Source: an uncultured Oscillospiraceae bacterium
GTDB taxonomy: Bacteria; Bacillota; Clostridia; Oscillospirales; Acutalibacteraceae
Length of the DNA: 26,162 nucleotides
Assembly (NCBI GenBank): GCA_900545625.1
Contig: UQZS01000022.1
Span: 1 to 26,162, forward strand
Reading direction: 5' to 3'
The notes beneath the pieces are model-generated. The model ran no database searches. It was not told the DNA's origin and saw only the letters and a program-made list of their open reading frames with translations. Both the position numbers and the translations under genes were made by a program. Below are positions 3,369 through 26,162 of this stretch, in pieces (position 1 is the first letter of the stretch; every line of letters starts with the position of its first letter).

Positions 3369-3444
3369 CCGGGTGTGGCGCAGTTGGTAGCGCGCGTGGT
3401 TTGGGACCATGAGGCCGCAGGTTCGAACCCTGTCACTCGGACCA
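3369..3444 (+). tRNA. tRNA-Pro (anticodon UGG)
   Basis: A 76-nt cloverleaf. The acceptor strand CCGGGTG pairs with CACTCGG (one G-U), followed by A and an encoded CCA. The anticodon loop reads TTTGGGA with anticodon TGG, and the T-arm has the GGTTCGAACCC pattern. This isoacceptor reads CCN proline codons. Confidence 0.95.
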
Positions 3445-3489
3445 GTTGAAAAATACGGGAGGTCCCGTTCTGCGATAAAAACTGCATAC

Positions 3490-3566
<77 letters not shown>

Positions 3567-3570
3567 AAAA

Positions 3571-3600
3571 GACTGCAAATGAAAAGTTTGCAGTCTTTTT
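3571..3600 (+). terminator. intrinsic terminator of the tRNA operon
   Basis: A 9-bp stem (GACTGCAAA at 3571-3579, TTTGCAGTC at 3587-3595) is followed by five T. Five A precede it, so it could also stop transcription from the other strand. Confidence 0.9.
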
Positions 3601-3885
3601 CTAAACCGTACAAACCAAGAAGGGATCGAACCCCATCGTCGATGTTGCGGCGGTTTGCCGCAAGGCAGAGCCGCAACCGACATATAATGCGGAAGGCTTG
3701 CGAAGCAAACGAACGAAGCAAAGCGGAGCGTCGCTTCGTTTTGCTTTTTTTATTCTTAACTTTCCCTTTGAATGTTCGATACGATGCGAGCGTCGGAGAG
3801 AGGAAACGAAGCTTTCGCTTACACTGTCGCTGCGCGCGCCTTTGGCAGGCGTGGAAGCCTGCCGCTGCGCAATATGGAAAAGCAG
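3601..3885. other. gene-free, hairpin-rich stretch with tRNA T-arm-like fragment
   Basis: No convincing gene was found on either strand. Visible elements, in order: around 3622-3635 the complement reads GGGGTTCGATCCCTT, like a tRNA T-arm; around 3644-3680 a hairpin GTTGCGGC...GCCGCAAC with a smaller TGCC/GGCA inside; around 3710-3750 a hairpin AACGAAGC...GCTTCGTT followed by a T-rich tail, terminator-like on the plus strand; and at 3844-3860 a GGCAGGC/GCCTGCC hairpin. It looks like decayed repeat or remnant DNA rather than a gene. Confidence 0.45.
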
Positions 3886-22497: not shown

Positions 22498-22532
22498 AGC
22501 GCGGCGAGGGAATTCCTCGCCGCGCTTAATTT
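22498..22532 (+). terminator. terminator of gdhA
   Basis: A perfect 12-bp GC-rich stem (arms 22498-22509 and 22515-22526) with a 5-nt loop, followed by TAATTTT. A smaller TCCCG/CGGGA hairpin precedes it at about 22477-22492. Confidence 0.88.
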
Positions 22533-22611: not shown

Positions 22612-22734
22612 TCAAATATCCAGCCAGCCGTCGTCCCCGCCCTCTACCGGGCCGGTGCCGACCGAAACGGTAATGATATCTTCCACATCATACACAGAGA
22701 CGTCGAAATCCGGGGTCTCATAGAGATGTTTCAT
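22612..22734 (-). CDS. 40-residue micro-protein B, paralogue of micro-protein A
   Basis: A 40-codon ORF starting MKHLYETPDFDVSVYDVEDI and ending GGDDGWLDI, strongly acidic, without a signal peptide or membrane segment. AAAGGAG stands before the ATG with about 9 nt spacing, a good translation start. It aligns without gaps to the preceding 41-residue ORF, with the shared pattern Y-x-x-P-D-F-x4-Y-x5-I-T and a shared G-D near the end. A Y-x-x-P-x-F-type opening is, from memory, common in short ORFs of gut Clostridia; no function is known to me. Candidates are a peptide signal, a RiPP-like precursor or a partner of the secreted protein upstream. Confidence 0.75.
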   Translation of the reverse strand: MKHLYETPDFDVSVYDVEDIITVSVGTGPVEGGDDGWLDI

Positions 22735-22770
22735 TTTCTCGTGCTCCTTTCAGAATCAAATTATCCCTTG

Positions 22771-22896
22771 TCACCGGAGGATCACCGCATCGCCGTCCTC
22801 CGGCAAGTCGCCGCTGATCTCAATTGTGATTGCTTCACTTTGCTCATACGCCGTATACGCGAAGTCCGGCGGTGCGTATATCTTTCCGGTTCCCAT
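22771..22896 (-). CDS. 41-residue micro-protein A, paralogue of micro-protein B
   Basis: A 41-codon ORF starting MGTGKIYAPPDFAYTAYEQS and ending GDAVILR, acidic, with no signal peptide. It begins 17 nt after the stop of the large secreted protein gene and has no clear Shine-Dalgarno sequence, so translation may depend on coupling to that gene. Similarity to micro-protein B at one constant offset (about 11 identities over 35 positions) shows that both are real and arose by duplication. Function unknown. Confidence 0.68.
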   Translation of the reverse strand: MGTGKIYAPPDFAYTAYEQSEAITIEISGDLPEDGDAVILR

Positions 22897-22913
22897 TGTA
22901 TTTTTCGCTGGGC

Positions 22914-25634
22914 TTAGCCGGCGTAAGGATACGCCGCAAGATAGTCCGCTGCAATGGCGTCATAATTTGTATTCAGAAAAGCCTGCTCGGCCGCATCATA
23001 GAACGCGTAAGCCGTCCTGCCGTCCGCATCGAGATACTCGACCACGCCGACATACGTCAAATCGGAACGCGTCGCTTCGCTCGTGATCTCCAGACGTGCG
23101 CCGAAGTATGCGTCAGCCGTGTCGCTTGTCTTCTGGATATAGTTCGTCCAGGCGACTTCATAGCCTTCCGCCGCGGTGCCCTGCGCCACTGCCTGTGCGG
23201 TTTCTATGCTGAAGCCTTCCGTGCCCTTGTACGCCACGAAGCCCAGTCTTTGGATCGCGTTGGTGTCGCCGCCGGCTGCCGTGTTCGCGAAGTACGTATC
23301 CCAATCCGCATCCGTGATCGTGGAGATCACACGGAACATGAAATCCTCCGCGACCGTCGTTTCGCTCGTCACCGTCATCTTGACCTGCGCTCTGCTCTTC
23401 GCGACAACCGGGCCTTCCTGCTCGAGTACTGTTGCGGTTGCGCTGAAATACTGTTTACCATCGGTGAGCGTTCCTGCGATCGCCGTTTCCTCCGTAAACG
23501 GCGAGCCGTCGATTTGGGTGGCGTCGGCATGCATCTGTTCCCAAGCCGGCTCCCGGGTGTTTTCATCGAAAATACCGTCGTCCAGGACCTTTATACTGAT
23601 CGCGGTGTTTTCGGGGCGAACGATCACGTTCCCTTCGCAGTAAAGGCTTTCCGTATAGCCTACTGCGGCTACGTTCCCACCCGAGAGGATGATATCCCCA
23701 TAGATTGCGATACCGCTGCTGTAAACGTCAGAGCCGTCACTCACGGCAAAGCCTCCTGCGGCTTTCACCGTGCCGCCGGTAACGGTAACGCCGGCGTCGG
23801 AAACGATACCGTCGCTGTAGGCGTAGCCGCCTTCACCCGTGGAGTCAGCTTCGCCGCCTGCGGCGTTCACTGCACCGCTGTTTATGGTGATATTGACACC
23901 GCCGATACCGTTGCTTTCCGCAAGCAGAGCTGTGGCAGCGCCGCCTGTGGCGGTGACCGTGCCGCCGGTGACGGTAATGAAATCGGATTTGATGCCGCTG
24001 CTGAAAGCGTAACCGTCTTCACCCGTGGCGGTAGCTTCGCCGCCTGCGGCGTTCACTGCGCCACTTCTTATGATAACAGCATCATAGGTGTGAATGCCGA
24101 TGCTGTAGGTATAACCGTATTCGCTCGTGACGGCTGCTGCCCCGCCCTTTGCTGTAACCGTACCGGCGCTCACGGTGACCCTATAGGCATAAATACCCGT
24201 GCTTTCGGCATTTTCCGAAGCTTCCACCGTACCGCCGGAAATATCCAGCGCGCCGTCGCCGGAGGCAGTGAGATTGCCGCCGACAAAGACCCCGAAGCTT
24301 GCACCGATTCCGTTTGCATCGTCGCCATTCGGGCCGATGATCGTGTTCGTGCCTGCAAGCTCGAGCGTAAGGTCGGTTTCACAAAAGACGGCGGCGGCGC
24401 CTCCGTACTCAAATTCGTGCGCGCCCTGCGTGACCGTCGCATTATTGAGGGTCAGCGTGCTGCCGTCCCAAGCGATGTTGTAGTTGTCCGCAGAAGCGCC
24501 CGCAGTCGTCACCGCGCCGGAAGCATCCGTCAAAGCATAAACGGTGGTGTCCGCCTTACCCGCAAGCACCACGCCGCCTACGCAGATAATGTCGTTAAGC
24601 TGTACCACAACGCTGTGGAAGTATTTTTCCCCGGCAACGAGGTCGGTGATCTCTGTTTCCGCTGCAAACGGAGAACCACTGATTTCCGATGCAGTCTCCG
24701 CAGTCCCGCCCGTATGCACCTCAATGCCCCCGCCGGTCTGCGGGTTGACGACAGCATAGCGAGCGTGGGAAACGGCCTCGCTGTCACCGGTGGCAGTGAC
24801 TTCCCCACCCTCTATGGAAACGTATCCGTTATTGGCACATACGCCATAACTGTAAATAAGGGAGTACTCGTTCGTGGCGGCGGCTTTACCGTCTGCGGCA
24901 GTGACTTTCCCGCCCCGTATGGAGACGTCTCCGTTGTTGGAAAATATACCGCAGCTGTAAACCATGCAGGCATGACCCATGGCGGTGGCTTCGCCGCCTG
25001 CGGCGGTTACATTGCCGCCCTCTATGATAACAGCACCATAAGTGTAGATGCCGTTGCTGTAGGTATAACCGTATCCGCCCGTGACGGCTGCTTCCCCGCC
25101 CTTTGCTGTGACCGTACCGGCACTTACGGTGACCCTATGGGCATAAACACCCATGCTTTTGGCATTTTCCGAAGCTTCCACCGTACCGCCGGCGGCATTC
25201 AGAGAACCGCCGCCGGAAATAAAGATCTCTTCATTGTTGATATAAATGCCATAGCTGGAGACATAAGCATTTCCGGATTCGTTATCCGATCCTCTGACAT
25301 GGCTCTCCCCGACCAGTTCTATCGTCAGATCGGTTTCGCAATAGATGGCAGCGGCTGCGCCGTCCTCAAATTCGTGCGCGCCCTGCGTGACCGTCGCGTT
25401 ATTCAGGGTAAGCGTGCTGCCGTCCCACGCGATGTTGTAATTGTCCGCAGAAGCGCCTGCGGTCATCACCGCGCCTGTATCATCCGTCAGAGCGTAGACG
25501 GGGGCGTCCGCACTGCCTGTGAGCGCTATGCCGCCGACATAGACTGTGTCGCCGTCCGCTGCGAATGCCGCGACGGGCAGCAGCGTCAGCACCAAGCATA
25601 GGCTCAGCAGGATCGCGGTCAATCGTTTTTTCAT
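22914..25634 (-). CDS. secreted repeat protein, probable beta-helix surface protein
   Basis: A 906-residue exported protein. Residues 1-26 are a classical signal peptide (MKKRLTAILLSLCLVLTLLP, then VAAFAA). Two large homologous units follow at about 28-345 and 348-735, each opening with a VGG-x5-G-x-A block and the shared NYNIAWDGSTLTLNNATVTQ. They continue with many short Gly/Ala/Thr/Val-rich rungs (of the type GGTVTATGGAA, VSAGTVTAKGG) that predict a right-handed parallel beta-helix, like carbohydrate-binding or adhesin domains. Each unit closes with an IxGSPF(A/T)xET element. A different C-terminal domain (about 738-906) ends AAYPYAG. No LPXTG, SLH or dockerin was seen, so attachment is unclear. 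The ATG at 25632-25634 has AAGGAGG about 9 nt upstream; the frame is open further up but lacks a signal there. Confidence 0.85.
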   Translation of the reverse strand: MKKRLTAILLSLCLVLTLLPVAAFAADGDTVYVGGIALTGSADAPVYALTDDTGAVMTAGASADNYNIAWDGSTLTLNNATVTQGAHEFEDGAAAAIYCETDLTIELVGESHVRGSDNESGNAYVSSYGIYINNEEIFISGGGSLNAAGGTVEASENAKSMGVYAHRVTVSAGTVTAKGGEAAVTGGYGYTYSNGIYTYGAVIIEGGNVTAAGGEATAMGHACMVYSCGIFSNNGDVSIRGGKVTAADGKAAATNEYSLIYSYGVCANNGYVSIEGGEVTATGDSEAVSHARYAVVNPQTGGGIEVHTGGTAETASEISGSPFAAETEITDLVAGEKYFHSVVVQLNDIICVGGVVLAGKADTTVYALTDASGAVTTAGASADNYNIAWDGSTLTLNNATVTQGAHEFEYGGAAAVFCETDLTLELAGTNTIIGPNGDDANGIGASFGVFVGGNLTASGDGALDISGGTVEASENAESTGIYAYRVTVSAGTVTAKGGAAAVTSEYGYTYSIGIHTYDAVIIRSGAVNAAGGEATATGEDGYAFSSGIKSDFITVTGGTVTATGGAATALLAESNGIGGVNITINSGAVNAAGGEADSTGEGGYAYSDGIVSDAGVTVTGGTVKAAGGFAVSDGSDVYSSGIAIYGDIILSGGNVAAVGYTESLYCEGNVIVRPENTAISIKVLDDGIFDENTREPAWEQMHADATQIDGSPFTEETAIAGTLTDGKQYFSATATVLEQEGPVVAKSRAQVKMTVTSETTVAEDFMFRVISTITDADWDTYFANTAAGGDTNAIQRLGFVAYKGTEGFSIETAQAVAQGTAAEGYEVAWTNYIQKTSDTADAYFGARLEITSEATRSDLTYVGVVEYLDADGRTAYAFYDAAEQAFLNTNYDAIAADYLAAYPYAG
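24069..24238. repeat. internal direct repeat R1, copy 1 (second copy 25023-25192)
   Basis: A stretch of about 170 bp nearly identical to 25023-25192, offset by 954 bp, within the secreted protein gene. It encodes the rungs around VSAGTVTAKGG and the Tyr-rich YGYTYS motif in both units. The high DNA identity points to recent duplication or gene conversion between the units. Confidence 0.85.
24408..24518. repeat. internal direct repeat R2, copy 1 (second copy 25365-25475)
   Basis: About 111 bp nearly identical to 25365-25475, offset by 957 bp. It encodes the shared SADNYNIAWDGSTLTLNNAT segment. The offset differs from R1 by one codon, so a 3-base indel separates the two units. Confidence 0.85.
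25023..25192. repeat. internal direct repeat R1, copy 2
   Basis: Partner of 24069-24238; it lies in the first (N-terminal) protein unit because the gene is on the minus strand. Confidence 0.85.
25365..25475. repeat. internal direct repeat R2, copy 2
   Basis: Partner of 24408-24518, in the N-terminal unit of the secreted protein. Confidence 0.85.
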
Positions 25635-25772
25635 GGATCCTTTCCTCCTTTTCGCGTCGGTTTGCGATCGTATAGATCCCCTTCCGCATGCCTTGGGGTA
25701 TATTCTTACACTGTAATTGTATCGAAAAAAGGGAGGATTTTCTATTACCCGTTTTGACCCCTGAAATGGGTG

Positions 25773-25801
25773 ATGCCCGCAGAAGTCTGCGGGCATTTTT
25801 C
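25773..25801 (+). terminator. plus-oriented intrinsic terminator without a plus-strand gene
   Basis: A perfect 11-bp stem (ATGCCCGCAGA at 25773-25783, TCTGCGGGCAT at 25786-25796) is followed by TTTTCT on the plus strand. It lies just after the stop of the minus-strand LuxR gene, where the T-tract is on the wrong side; the minus strand has only A before the hairpin. It could still pause minus-strand transcription or stop antisense RNA. The rest of 25635-25800 is the leader of the secreted protein gene; a TACAAT near 25710 is a possible -10 without a good -35. Confidence 0.55.
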
Positions 25802-26162
25802 TATTGCAGCATATACTGTTTCAATTCTTTCCGGGTTCCGACATGCAATTTCCGCATGGCTTCGGAGATGTGGCTTTTGACTGTATTTGCCGATATATGC
25901 AGGTGTTCTGCGATCTCCTGATTCGTCCAGCCTCTGGCGGCGAGCATCGCCATGGCAAACTCGGTGGTGGTCAGATCATCGGCGACATCGTGCCCGGTGA
26001 TCGGGTTATGCACTCTACGCCACCCGGAAGAGAAACGATAGGTGATATCAATGATCCGCTTAAAATCCTTCGGCCATTTTGGTTTGATGACCGCCTCCAG
26101 CATGGCGCCCAACAGGCCGTGATGCTCCCCGAAGCCCTCGATGAGATCGTCCGGTTGGGCGA
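25801..26162 (-). CDS. LuxR-type transcriptional regulator, C-terminal part (cut by window edge)
   Basis: The frame is open to the right edge, so only the last 120 residues are visible. The end holds a LuxR/GerE helix-turn-helix of about 55 residues: LTTTEFAMAMLAARGWTNQE, IAEHLHISANTVKSHISEA and MRKLHVGTRKELKQ. The region before it (WPKDFKRIIDITYRFSSGW) could be the end of a sensor or a MalT-like helical domain; this cannot be decided. It precedes the secreted protein and the two micro-proteins on the same strand and may control them, which is inference. Confidence 0.85.
   Translation of the reverse strand, partial: AQPDDLIEGFGEHHGLLGAMLEAVIKPKWPKDFKRIIDITYRFSSGWRRVHNPITGHDVADDLTTTEFAMAMLAARGWTNQEIAEHLHISANTVKSHISEAMRKLHVGTRKELKQYMLQ

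What the first reader, a model, noticed from the sequence alone, without database searches (positions are those of the whole stretch)
22612..22896. Two tandem paralogous micro-protein genes directly behind a secreted repeat protein
Two ORFs of 41 and 40 codons, missed by size cut-offs, sit in a row on the minus strand. They align without a gap at one constant offset: Y7/Y5, P10/P8, D11/D9, F12/F10, Y17/Y15, I23/I21, T24/T22, E33/E31, G35/G33, D36/D34 and L40/L38. The second has a good ribosome binding site. Such retained similarity between two reading frames is hard to explain by chance and argues for translated, selected peptides. With the surface protein just upstream and a LuxR regulator before it, they may form a small system: secreted protein plus peptide pair. 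No modifying enzyme or exporter is visible in the window, so a RiPP interpretation is open.
Basis: partly seen in the sequence, partly recalled or inferred. Interest (0 to 1): 0.72.

Follow-up and report, generated by a model that had tools for sequence, protein, structure and literature searches.

The report
Paired phosphopeptide precursors behind secreted protein
Two tiny genes behind a surface-protein gene in a gut Clostridia bacterium look like precursors of a recently described kind of phosphorylated peptide, and relatives carry many such precursors, nearly all behind secreted-protein genes and mostly not next to the enzymes thought to process them.

Summary
In detail: both ORFs, all 11 identities and the ribosome-binding site are there, and the similarity is not chance (0 of 20,000 shuffles; dN/dS about 0.14-0.15). 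They belong to a large unnamed family with the motif YxxPxF...EDIITxS. In the same genus and beyond, the family co-occurs with the gene set of LPP RiPPs (linear polyphosphorylated peptides, Popov et al. 2026): PqqD-type RRE, HprK-like kinase, SipW-type peptidase, MsbA-like exporter, NTP transferase. In SIG554 the same tandem stands directly before kinase-RRE-peptidase-exporter. Order sample: 32 of 38 precursor genomes have the peptidase, against 87 of 295 overall; the control gene cas1 shows no such link (8 of 38, 90 of 295). Class sample: 16 of 17, against 76 of 292. New: precursors mostly lie apart from the enzymes, up to 11 per genome, behind secreted-protein genes (54 of 58 distinct complete upstream ORFs signal-peptide-like). 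Against: the window's own genome is not held; the nearest relative's orthologous pair is decayed; leader spacing differs from published LPPs; no peptide has been seen. What the product does, presumably with the secreted protein at the surface, is inference.

The parts
22612..22734 (-). precursor B, 40 aa MKHLYETPDFDVSVYDVEDIITVSVGTGPVEGGDDGWLDI
   Evidence: 24 database homologues at E<=10; matches in 24 of 40 relatives at E<=1; pooled dN/dS 0.137 over 8 sequences
22771..22896 (-). precursor A, 41 aa MGTGKIYAPPDFAYTAYEQSEAITIEISGDLPEDGDAVILR
   Evidence: A/B tandems in 7 held genomes; dN/dS 0.150 over 3 sequences
22669..22734 (-). predicted leader of B (residues 1-22; Y5xxP8xF10 as RRE-binding motif, T22 as last leader residue)
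   Evidence: inference from the LPP cleavage site after T-1 (PMC13381572) and T at Y+17 in 71 of 85 precursors with YxxP
22615..22668 (-). predicted core of B (residues 23-40); Ser24 (codon 22663-22665) is the predicted phosphorylation site
   Evidence: inference; Ser at Y+19 in 118 of 119 retrieved database proteins with YxxP and 72 of 85 locus precursors; both sets were found by motif-bearing profiles
22774..22824 (-). predicted core of A (residues 25-41); nearest Ser is S28, at T+4
   Evidence: inference by the same logic; spacing differs from B
22744..22750 (-). ribosome-binding site AAAGGAG of B
   Evidence: 9 of 9 aligned tandem loci
22914..25634 (-). secreted repeat protein (probable start at the Met before the signal peptide; the ORF runs to 25796)
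   Evidence: sequence; Beta_helix_3 and InlJ_IG below cut-off
22917..23426 (-). C-terminal Ig/FnIII-like domain (last 170 aa), shared with other genus secreted proteins that precede such ORFs, whose N-terminal parts differ
   Evidence: alignments; AlphaFold2 pLDDT 90.4; only weak, general fold matches
22498..22526 (-). terminator-like hairpin after B, followed by GTTTTTC
   Evidence: pattern match
25801..26112 (-). LuxR-type HTH gene (its frame is open to the window end); relation to the system not tested
   Evidence: GerE 3.5e-14

Best explanation
ORFs A and B are paired RiPP-type precursor peptides of an LPP-like (linear polyphosphorylated peptide) pathway that works in trans. Shown here: they are selected coding sequences of a family with an RRE-type YxxPx[FILV] motif and a conserved T-x-S 17-19 residues after the Tyr; the family co-occurs with a PqqD-type RRE, HprK-like kinase, S26/SipW-type peptidase, MsbA-like exporter and NTP transferase; nearly all examined precursor genes follow a secreted-protein gene. 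Inferred from the published LPP biochemistry: the RRE binds Y and P, the kinase phosphorylates the conserved Ser (Ser24 of B), the peptidase cuts after Thr22, and the exporter releases a short, very acidic linear phosphopeptide (18 residues for B, 17 for A). Inferred further and less sure (about 0.3): the peptide meets the secreted protein at the cell surface as a co-made partner, tag or link to surface polysaccharide.
For: G245 (SIG554): dockerin-bearing secreted protein, secreted protein, A-like, B-like, kinase, RRE, S26, ABC, Wzz/AAA_31 protein on one strand. Precursor beside the machinery also in G023, G003, G033 (Ethanoligenens harbinense), G094, G513, G393. Order sample, 295 genomes: precursor (E<=1e-3) in 38, 32 of them with S26, S26 only 55, neither 202, p=6e-14; by genus 23/2/33/90, p=1e-9. 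Control on the same 295: cas1 in 8 of the 38 and in 90 overall, p=0.19. Class sample, 292: 16 of 17 precursor genomes have S26, which is in 76; without own-genus G001 15 of 16. 9 of 50 order genomes with both have a precursor within 10 kb of S26, 1.1 expected, max 8 in 20,000 simulations. Genus, 25 genomes: RRE 23, S26 22, NTP transferase 24. Nearest genome G001 has kinase, RRE, S26, ABC in one locus and the NTP transferase elsewhere. RRE residues matching LppB N33/D70 in 17 and 18 of 19; kinase model (pLDDT 95.5) has HprK/P fold; peptidase Ser, His, Asp in 17 of 17. 54 of 58 distinct complete upstream ORFs are signal-peptide-like.
Against: The window's own assembly is not held, so its machinery is inferred from kin. 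G001's orthologous pair is decayed: no ATG, B T22A and S24L, A T24K. Window A lacks the C-terminal W of six other A copies. Spacing (T at Y+17, S at Y+19) differs from published LPP (T at Y+15, S at Y+18); A-type peptides have Ser at T+4. 6 of 38 order genomes and 1 of 17 class genomes with precursors have no detected S26; 55 of 87 S26 genomes in the order and 60 of 76 in the class have no detected precursor. 5 of the 9 close precursor/S26 pairs rest on precursor hits of E 0.03-0.1. The RRE profile scores the lasso RRE TbiB1 above LppB in PDB. L033, L047, L048 precursors are not behind a secreted gene; two of the 54 'secreted' neighbours (L057, L165) are membrane proteins by eye. The secretion baseline in the same loci is high, 142 of 301. 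Shared descent makes the p-values too small. No peptide has been observed.
Confidence: 0.75

Rival explanations
1. The ORFs are small partner proteins (chaperone or surface subunit) of the secreted protein that are never modified; co-occurrence with the RRE/kinase/peptidase set only reflects shared ancestry in Clostridia.
For: Position behind secreted-protein genes; in 41 of 50 order genomes with both, no detected precursor lies within 10 kb of S26 (draft contigs can hide some).
Against: YxxP and the Ser at Y+19 are kept while C-termini vary; the link holds in two samples (at least 14 genomes in common, only G001 of them with a precursor at E<=1e-3 in both) and by genus, while cas1 on the same genomes shows none; adjacency above chance.
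Confidence: 0.12
2. The peptides are modified and exported as above but act on their own, as signals or antimicrobials; the position behind secreted genes only shares a promoter.
For: Published LPPs have no known role, and the sections and passages I read describe no secreted partner; 'secreted' occurs 0 times in that main text. Short gaps fit simple co-transcription.
Against: In G331, 9 of 11 precursors lie 25-49 bp behind different secreted proteins with near-identical signal peptides, which fits partnership better than one free signal; in the genus the secreted proteins share a C-terminal domain despite different N-termini.
Confidence: 0.35
3. Chance or decaying ORFs without function.
For: G001's orthologous copy lost both start codons and T/S residues; window A lacks the C-terminal W.
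Against: 0 of 20,000 shuffles; dN/dS 0.14-0.15, and pN/pS 1.7 and 3.4 for B read in the other two frames; 296 database proteins at E<=0.01.
Confidence: 0.08

Closest known systems
Linear polyphosphorylated peptides, LPP (Popov et al. 2026, PMC13381572; read: abstract, sections 6, 7, 10, 11, 12; passages of sections 4, 8, 9)
   Same: RRE, HprK-like kinase, archaeal-type signal peptidase, MsbA-like exporter and NTP transferase; small precursors with a YxxP leader motif and a T..S stretch; no lasso B2 domain over cut-off in the 25 genus genomes; near a polysaccharide-type gene (Wzz/AAA_31, tested in G245).
   Different: Found in Clostridia; precursors mostly not next to the enzymes, up to 11 per genome with one S26, nearly all behind secreted-protein genes; tandem A/B pairs; T/S at Y+17/Y+19 instead of Y+15/Y+18; enzyme set sometimes split (kinase-RRE-ABC and S26-NTP).
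Paeninodin-like lasso peptides with HprK-type kinases (as described in PMC13381572)
   Same: RRE, kinase, NTP transferase; [Y/W]xxP leader.
   Different: Bacillota paeninodins use WxxP and a Gly at the LppB N33 position; here YxxP, and Asn in 17 of 19 RREs; B2 domain PF13471 over cut-off in 0 of 25 genus genomes, with weak sub-cut-off matches in 9.
HPr kinase/phosphatase
   Same: Fold of the kinase model and its P-loop.
   Different: At most 20% identity in the listed fold matches; no sequence match of the profile in PDB; predicted substrate is the precursor, not HPr.

Membership tests
LPP RiPPs | discrete PqqD-type RRE | tested here: met
   PF05402 3.8e-18; 23 of 25 genus genomes. The window's own genome is not held.
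LPP RiPPs | RRE residues N33 and D70 (Tyr-type binding) | tested here: met
   17 and 18 of 19 RREs; mapped by my reading of the LppB chain, where one numbering offset of 18 fits both
LPP RiPPs | HprK-like kinase | tested here: met
   28 of 28 loci chosen by RRE, S26 or precursor hits; NCBIfam ScmC and HprK_rel_A below cut-off; HprK/P fold
LPP RiPPs | SpI/SipW-type leader peptidase | tested here: met
   22 of 25 genus genomes; sigpep_I_arch match below its cut-off; Ser, His, Asp in 17 of 17 read by motif order
LPP RiPPs | MsbA-like exporter | tested here: met
   24 of 28 loci; ABC_membrane and ABC_tran over cut-off, MsbA_rel the best NCBIfam hit, below cut-off
LPP RiPPs | NTP transferase | tested here: met
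   PF14907 over cut-off in 24 of 25 genus genomes, but in 0 of the 18 genus RRE loci; within 2.1 kb of S26 in G012, G016, G018, G021
LPP RiPPs | no macrolactam cyclase or lasso leader peptidase with the set | tested here: inconclusive
   PF13471 over cut-off in 0 of 25 genus genomes, sub-cut-off in 9; the asparagine-synthetase-type cyclase was not searched
LPP RiPPs | precursor motif YxxPxVLxHQxIxFETxxS | tested here: not met
   YxxP and T..S kept, but HQ and FET absent and T and S two and one residues further
LPP RiPPs | precursor inside the gene cluster | tested here: inconclusive
   beside it in G245, G023, G003, G033, G094, G513, G393; not so for the tandem pairs of G001, G004, G013, G020, G025
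LPP RiPPs | RRE falls in the LPP clade of the RRE tree | not tested
   no tree made; PDB profile search ranks TbiB1 above LppB
LPP RiPPs | multiple phosphates on core Ser, cleavage after T-1 | not testable with these tools
   needs co-expression and mass spectrometry
Paeninodin-like lasso peptides | WxxP precursor | tested here: not met
   YxxP in both window peptides and in 85 of 88 precursors
Paeninodin-like lasso peptides | B2 leader peptidase | tested here: not met
   PF13471 over cut-off in 0 of 25 genus genomes, sub-cut-off in 9

The most novel reading that the evidence does not exclude
Clostridia use a genome-wide secreted-protein/phosphopeptide pairing system: one cytoplasmic RRE-kinase-peptidase-exporter set makes, for each of many secreted proteins, its own phosphorylated peptide encoded just behind it, and this peptide attaches, folds or anchors that protein at the cell surface or capsule.
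Probability: 0.3. Interest if true: 0.9.

Novelty: new variant of a known kind. Interest (0 to 1): 0.72.

Why it matters
LPPs were described in 2026 with unknown role and with precursors inside their gene clusters. Here the same gene set is found in many Clostridia, with precursors spread over the genome behind secreted-protein genes. That gives the pathway a likely set of partners and makes its function testable, for example in Ethanoligenens harbinense YUAN-3, whose peptide Ethha_0863 (sequence equal to the G033 peptide) lies beside the enzymes. It also suggests that cluster-based RiPP mining would miss many precursors of such systems, and gives a likely role to a class of tiny genes that carry, where a name was shown, only 'hypothetical' or 'uncharacterized'.

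Full report
What is there. The window holds, on the minus strand, a LuxR-type HTH gene, a secreted repeat protein (ORF 22914-25796, probable start 25634), ORF A (22771-22896) and ORF B (22612-22734), then a terminator-like hairpin (22498-22526). No Pfam or NCBIfam family matches either peptide.

They are genes. B has 24 database homologues at E<=10, one named as Candidatus Fimenecus sp., and matches in 24 of 40 related genomes at E<=1. Pooled dN/dS is 0.137 for B (8 sequences) and 0.150 for A (3 sequences); read in the other two frames, B gives pN/pS of 1.7 and 3.4. AAAGGAG before B is kept in 9 of 9 aligned tandem loci. A/B tandems occur in G001 (two loci), G004, G013, G017, G020, G025, G245 and the window.

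Result against. The nearest held genome, G001, has the orthologous locus (LuxR, 960-aa protein, A, B, gdh; L035), but its A and B have no ATG at the usual places, B has T22A and S24L, A has T24K. It keeps an intact pair elsewhere (L034). In the window, A lacks the C-terminal W of six other A copies. This copy may be losing importance while the family stays under selection.

The family. Aligned members share YxxPxF, an acidic stretch and T-x-S. Of 88 deduplicated precursors (E<=0.01) from 80 loci, 85 have YxxP; among these, T stands at Y+17 in 71 and S at Y+19 in 72. Of the 120 retrieved database proteins (one search listed the best 120 of 296), 119 have YxxP, 110 T at Y+17 and 118 S at Y+19. 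Both sets were found with motif-bearing profiles. C-termini vary; mean net charge is -6.5.

The machinery. In L039 (G023) and L066 (G033) the precursor is followed by an HprK-like kinase, a PqqD-type RRE, an S24/S26 peptidase and an ABC exporter, in G033 also an NTP transferase. In G245 (Oscillospiraceae bacterium SIG554) an A-like and a B-like ORF stand directly before kinase, RRE, peptidase and exporter, behind two secreted genes, one with a dockerin domain. Of 28 loci chosen by RRE, S26 or precursor hits, 28 have the kinase, 28 the RRE, 21 the peptidase, 24 the exporter and 4 the NTP transferase; some end at contig edges. The window has none of the set. In the 25 genus genomes the RRE is in 23, S26 in 22, NTP_transf_5 in 24. 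Of the seven genus loci without S26, four genomes (G012, G016, G018, G021) have S26 and NTP transferase within 2.1 kb of each other elsewhere. Among the 15 other genomes of that sample, RRE and S26 are both in G027, G033, G038 and G039 and in no other; NTP_transf_5 is in these four and in G040.

Co-occurrence. Order sample, 295 genomes: precursor at E<=1e-3 in 38, S26 in 87, both 32, precursor only 6, S26 only 55, neither 202, p=6e-14; without the own genus 28/6/54/202. By genus: 23 both, 2, 33, 90. Control: cas1 in the same 295 genomes is in 90, and in 8 of the 38 precursor genomes, p=0.19. Class sample, 292 genomes: precursor in 17, S26 in 76, both 16; without G001 15 of 16. At least 14 genomes are in both samples. 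The genomes are related by descent, so p-values are too small; the control, the second sample and the collapse by genus are the checks made. In 9 of the 50 order genomes with both (precursor E<=0.1) a precursor lies within 10 kb of S26; 1.1 are expected and 8 was the most in 20,000 simulations. 5 of those 9 rest on precursor hits of E 0.03-0.1.

The secreted neighbours. Of 80 precursors with at least 700 bp upstream, 76 have a same-strand ORF of 200 aa or more ending within 450 bp. These are 67 distinct ORFs; 58 are complete, and 54 of them look signal-peptide-like by a rough rule that also of 301 ORFs in the same loci. By eye, two of the 54 (L057, L165) are membrane proteins, and two of the four misses (L066, L190) have a signal peptide behind a later Met. 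L033, L047 and L048 precursors are not behind a secreted gene. G331 (another order) has 11 precursor matches and one S26; 9 of the 11 lie 25-49 bp behind different secreted proteins with near-identical signal peptides. In the genus, the secreted proteins share a C-terminal Ig/FnIII-like domain although their N-termini differ; a link to the secreted proteins of other families was not established.

What it is. The gene set is that of LPP RiPPs (PMC13381572): there the RRE binds YxxP, an HprK-like kinase puts several phosphates on core Ser3, and a SipW-like peptidase cuts after Thr-1. RRE residues matching LppB N33 and D70 (mapped through the LppB chain) are kept in 17 and 18 of 19 of our RREs, the kinase model has the HprK/P fold, and the peptidase keeps Ser, His and Asp in 17 of 17. 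The exact LPP leader motif and spacing are not met, and the RRE profile scores the lasso RRE TbiB1 above LppB, so I call it LPP-like, a variant, not a plain member.

How it probably works. Shown: selection, motif, co-occurrence, position. Inferred: RRE binding, phosphorylation of Ser24 (B), cleavage after Thr22, export of an acidic linear phosphopeptide, and contact with the co-made secreted protein at the surface. The Wzz/AAA_31 gene after the exporter (Pfam-tested in G245; similar-looking ORFs in the same place in most genus loci) agrees with the capsule link noted for LPPs.

Noticed in passing
L035 (G001:C7) 3440-3720, orthologous to window 22612-22910: Both small ORFs have lost their start codons and conserved Thr/Ser residues in the nearest held relative, while a second intact pair exists in the same genome.
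   Followed up: partly
L150 3922-5403 and, by eye, the same place in most genus machinery loci: A Wzz plus AAA_31 (BY-kinase-like) protein follows the exporter, hinting at a link to surface polysaccharide.
   Followed up: partly
L150 10674-11759; L037 1332-2510: Secreted proteins with a dockerin-like C-terminus (over cut-off in L150, just below in L037) stand before the precursor-linked secreted gene; a surface complex is possible.
   Followed up: no
L033 3088-3207, L047 3566-3736, L048 3644-3763: A precursor-like ORF near an nrdR-like gene in three genomes, not behind a secreted protein.
   Followed up: no
L171, L173-L179 (G331): Nine secreted proteins with near-identical signal peptides (eight begin MRKRRILSLLLAVAV, one MRTKRILSLLLAITV), each followed at 25-49 bp by a precursor ORF.
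   Followed up: partly
L101 4874-5026 (G003): A 50-aa YxxP peptide directly before the kinase gene, behind a 478-aa protein without a signal-peptide-like start.
   Followed up: no
L118 6171-6473 (G038): A YEKP-containing 100-aa ORF of a different type lies between RRE and kinase, perhaps another precursor class.
   Followed up: no
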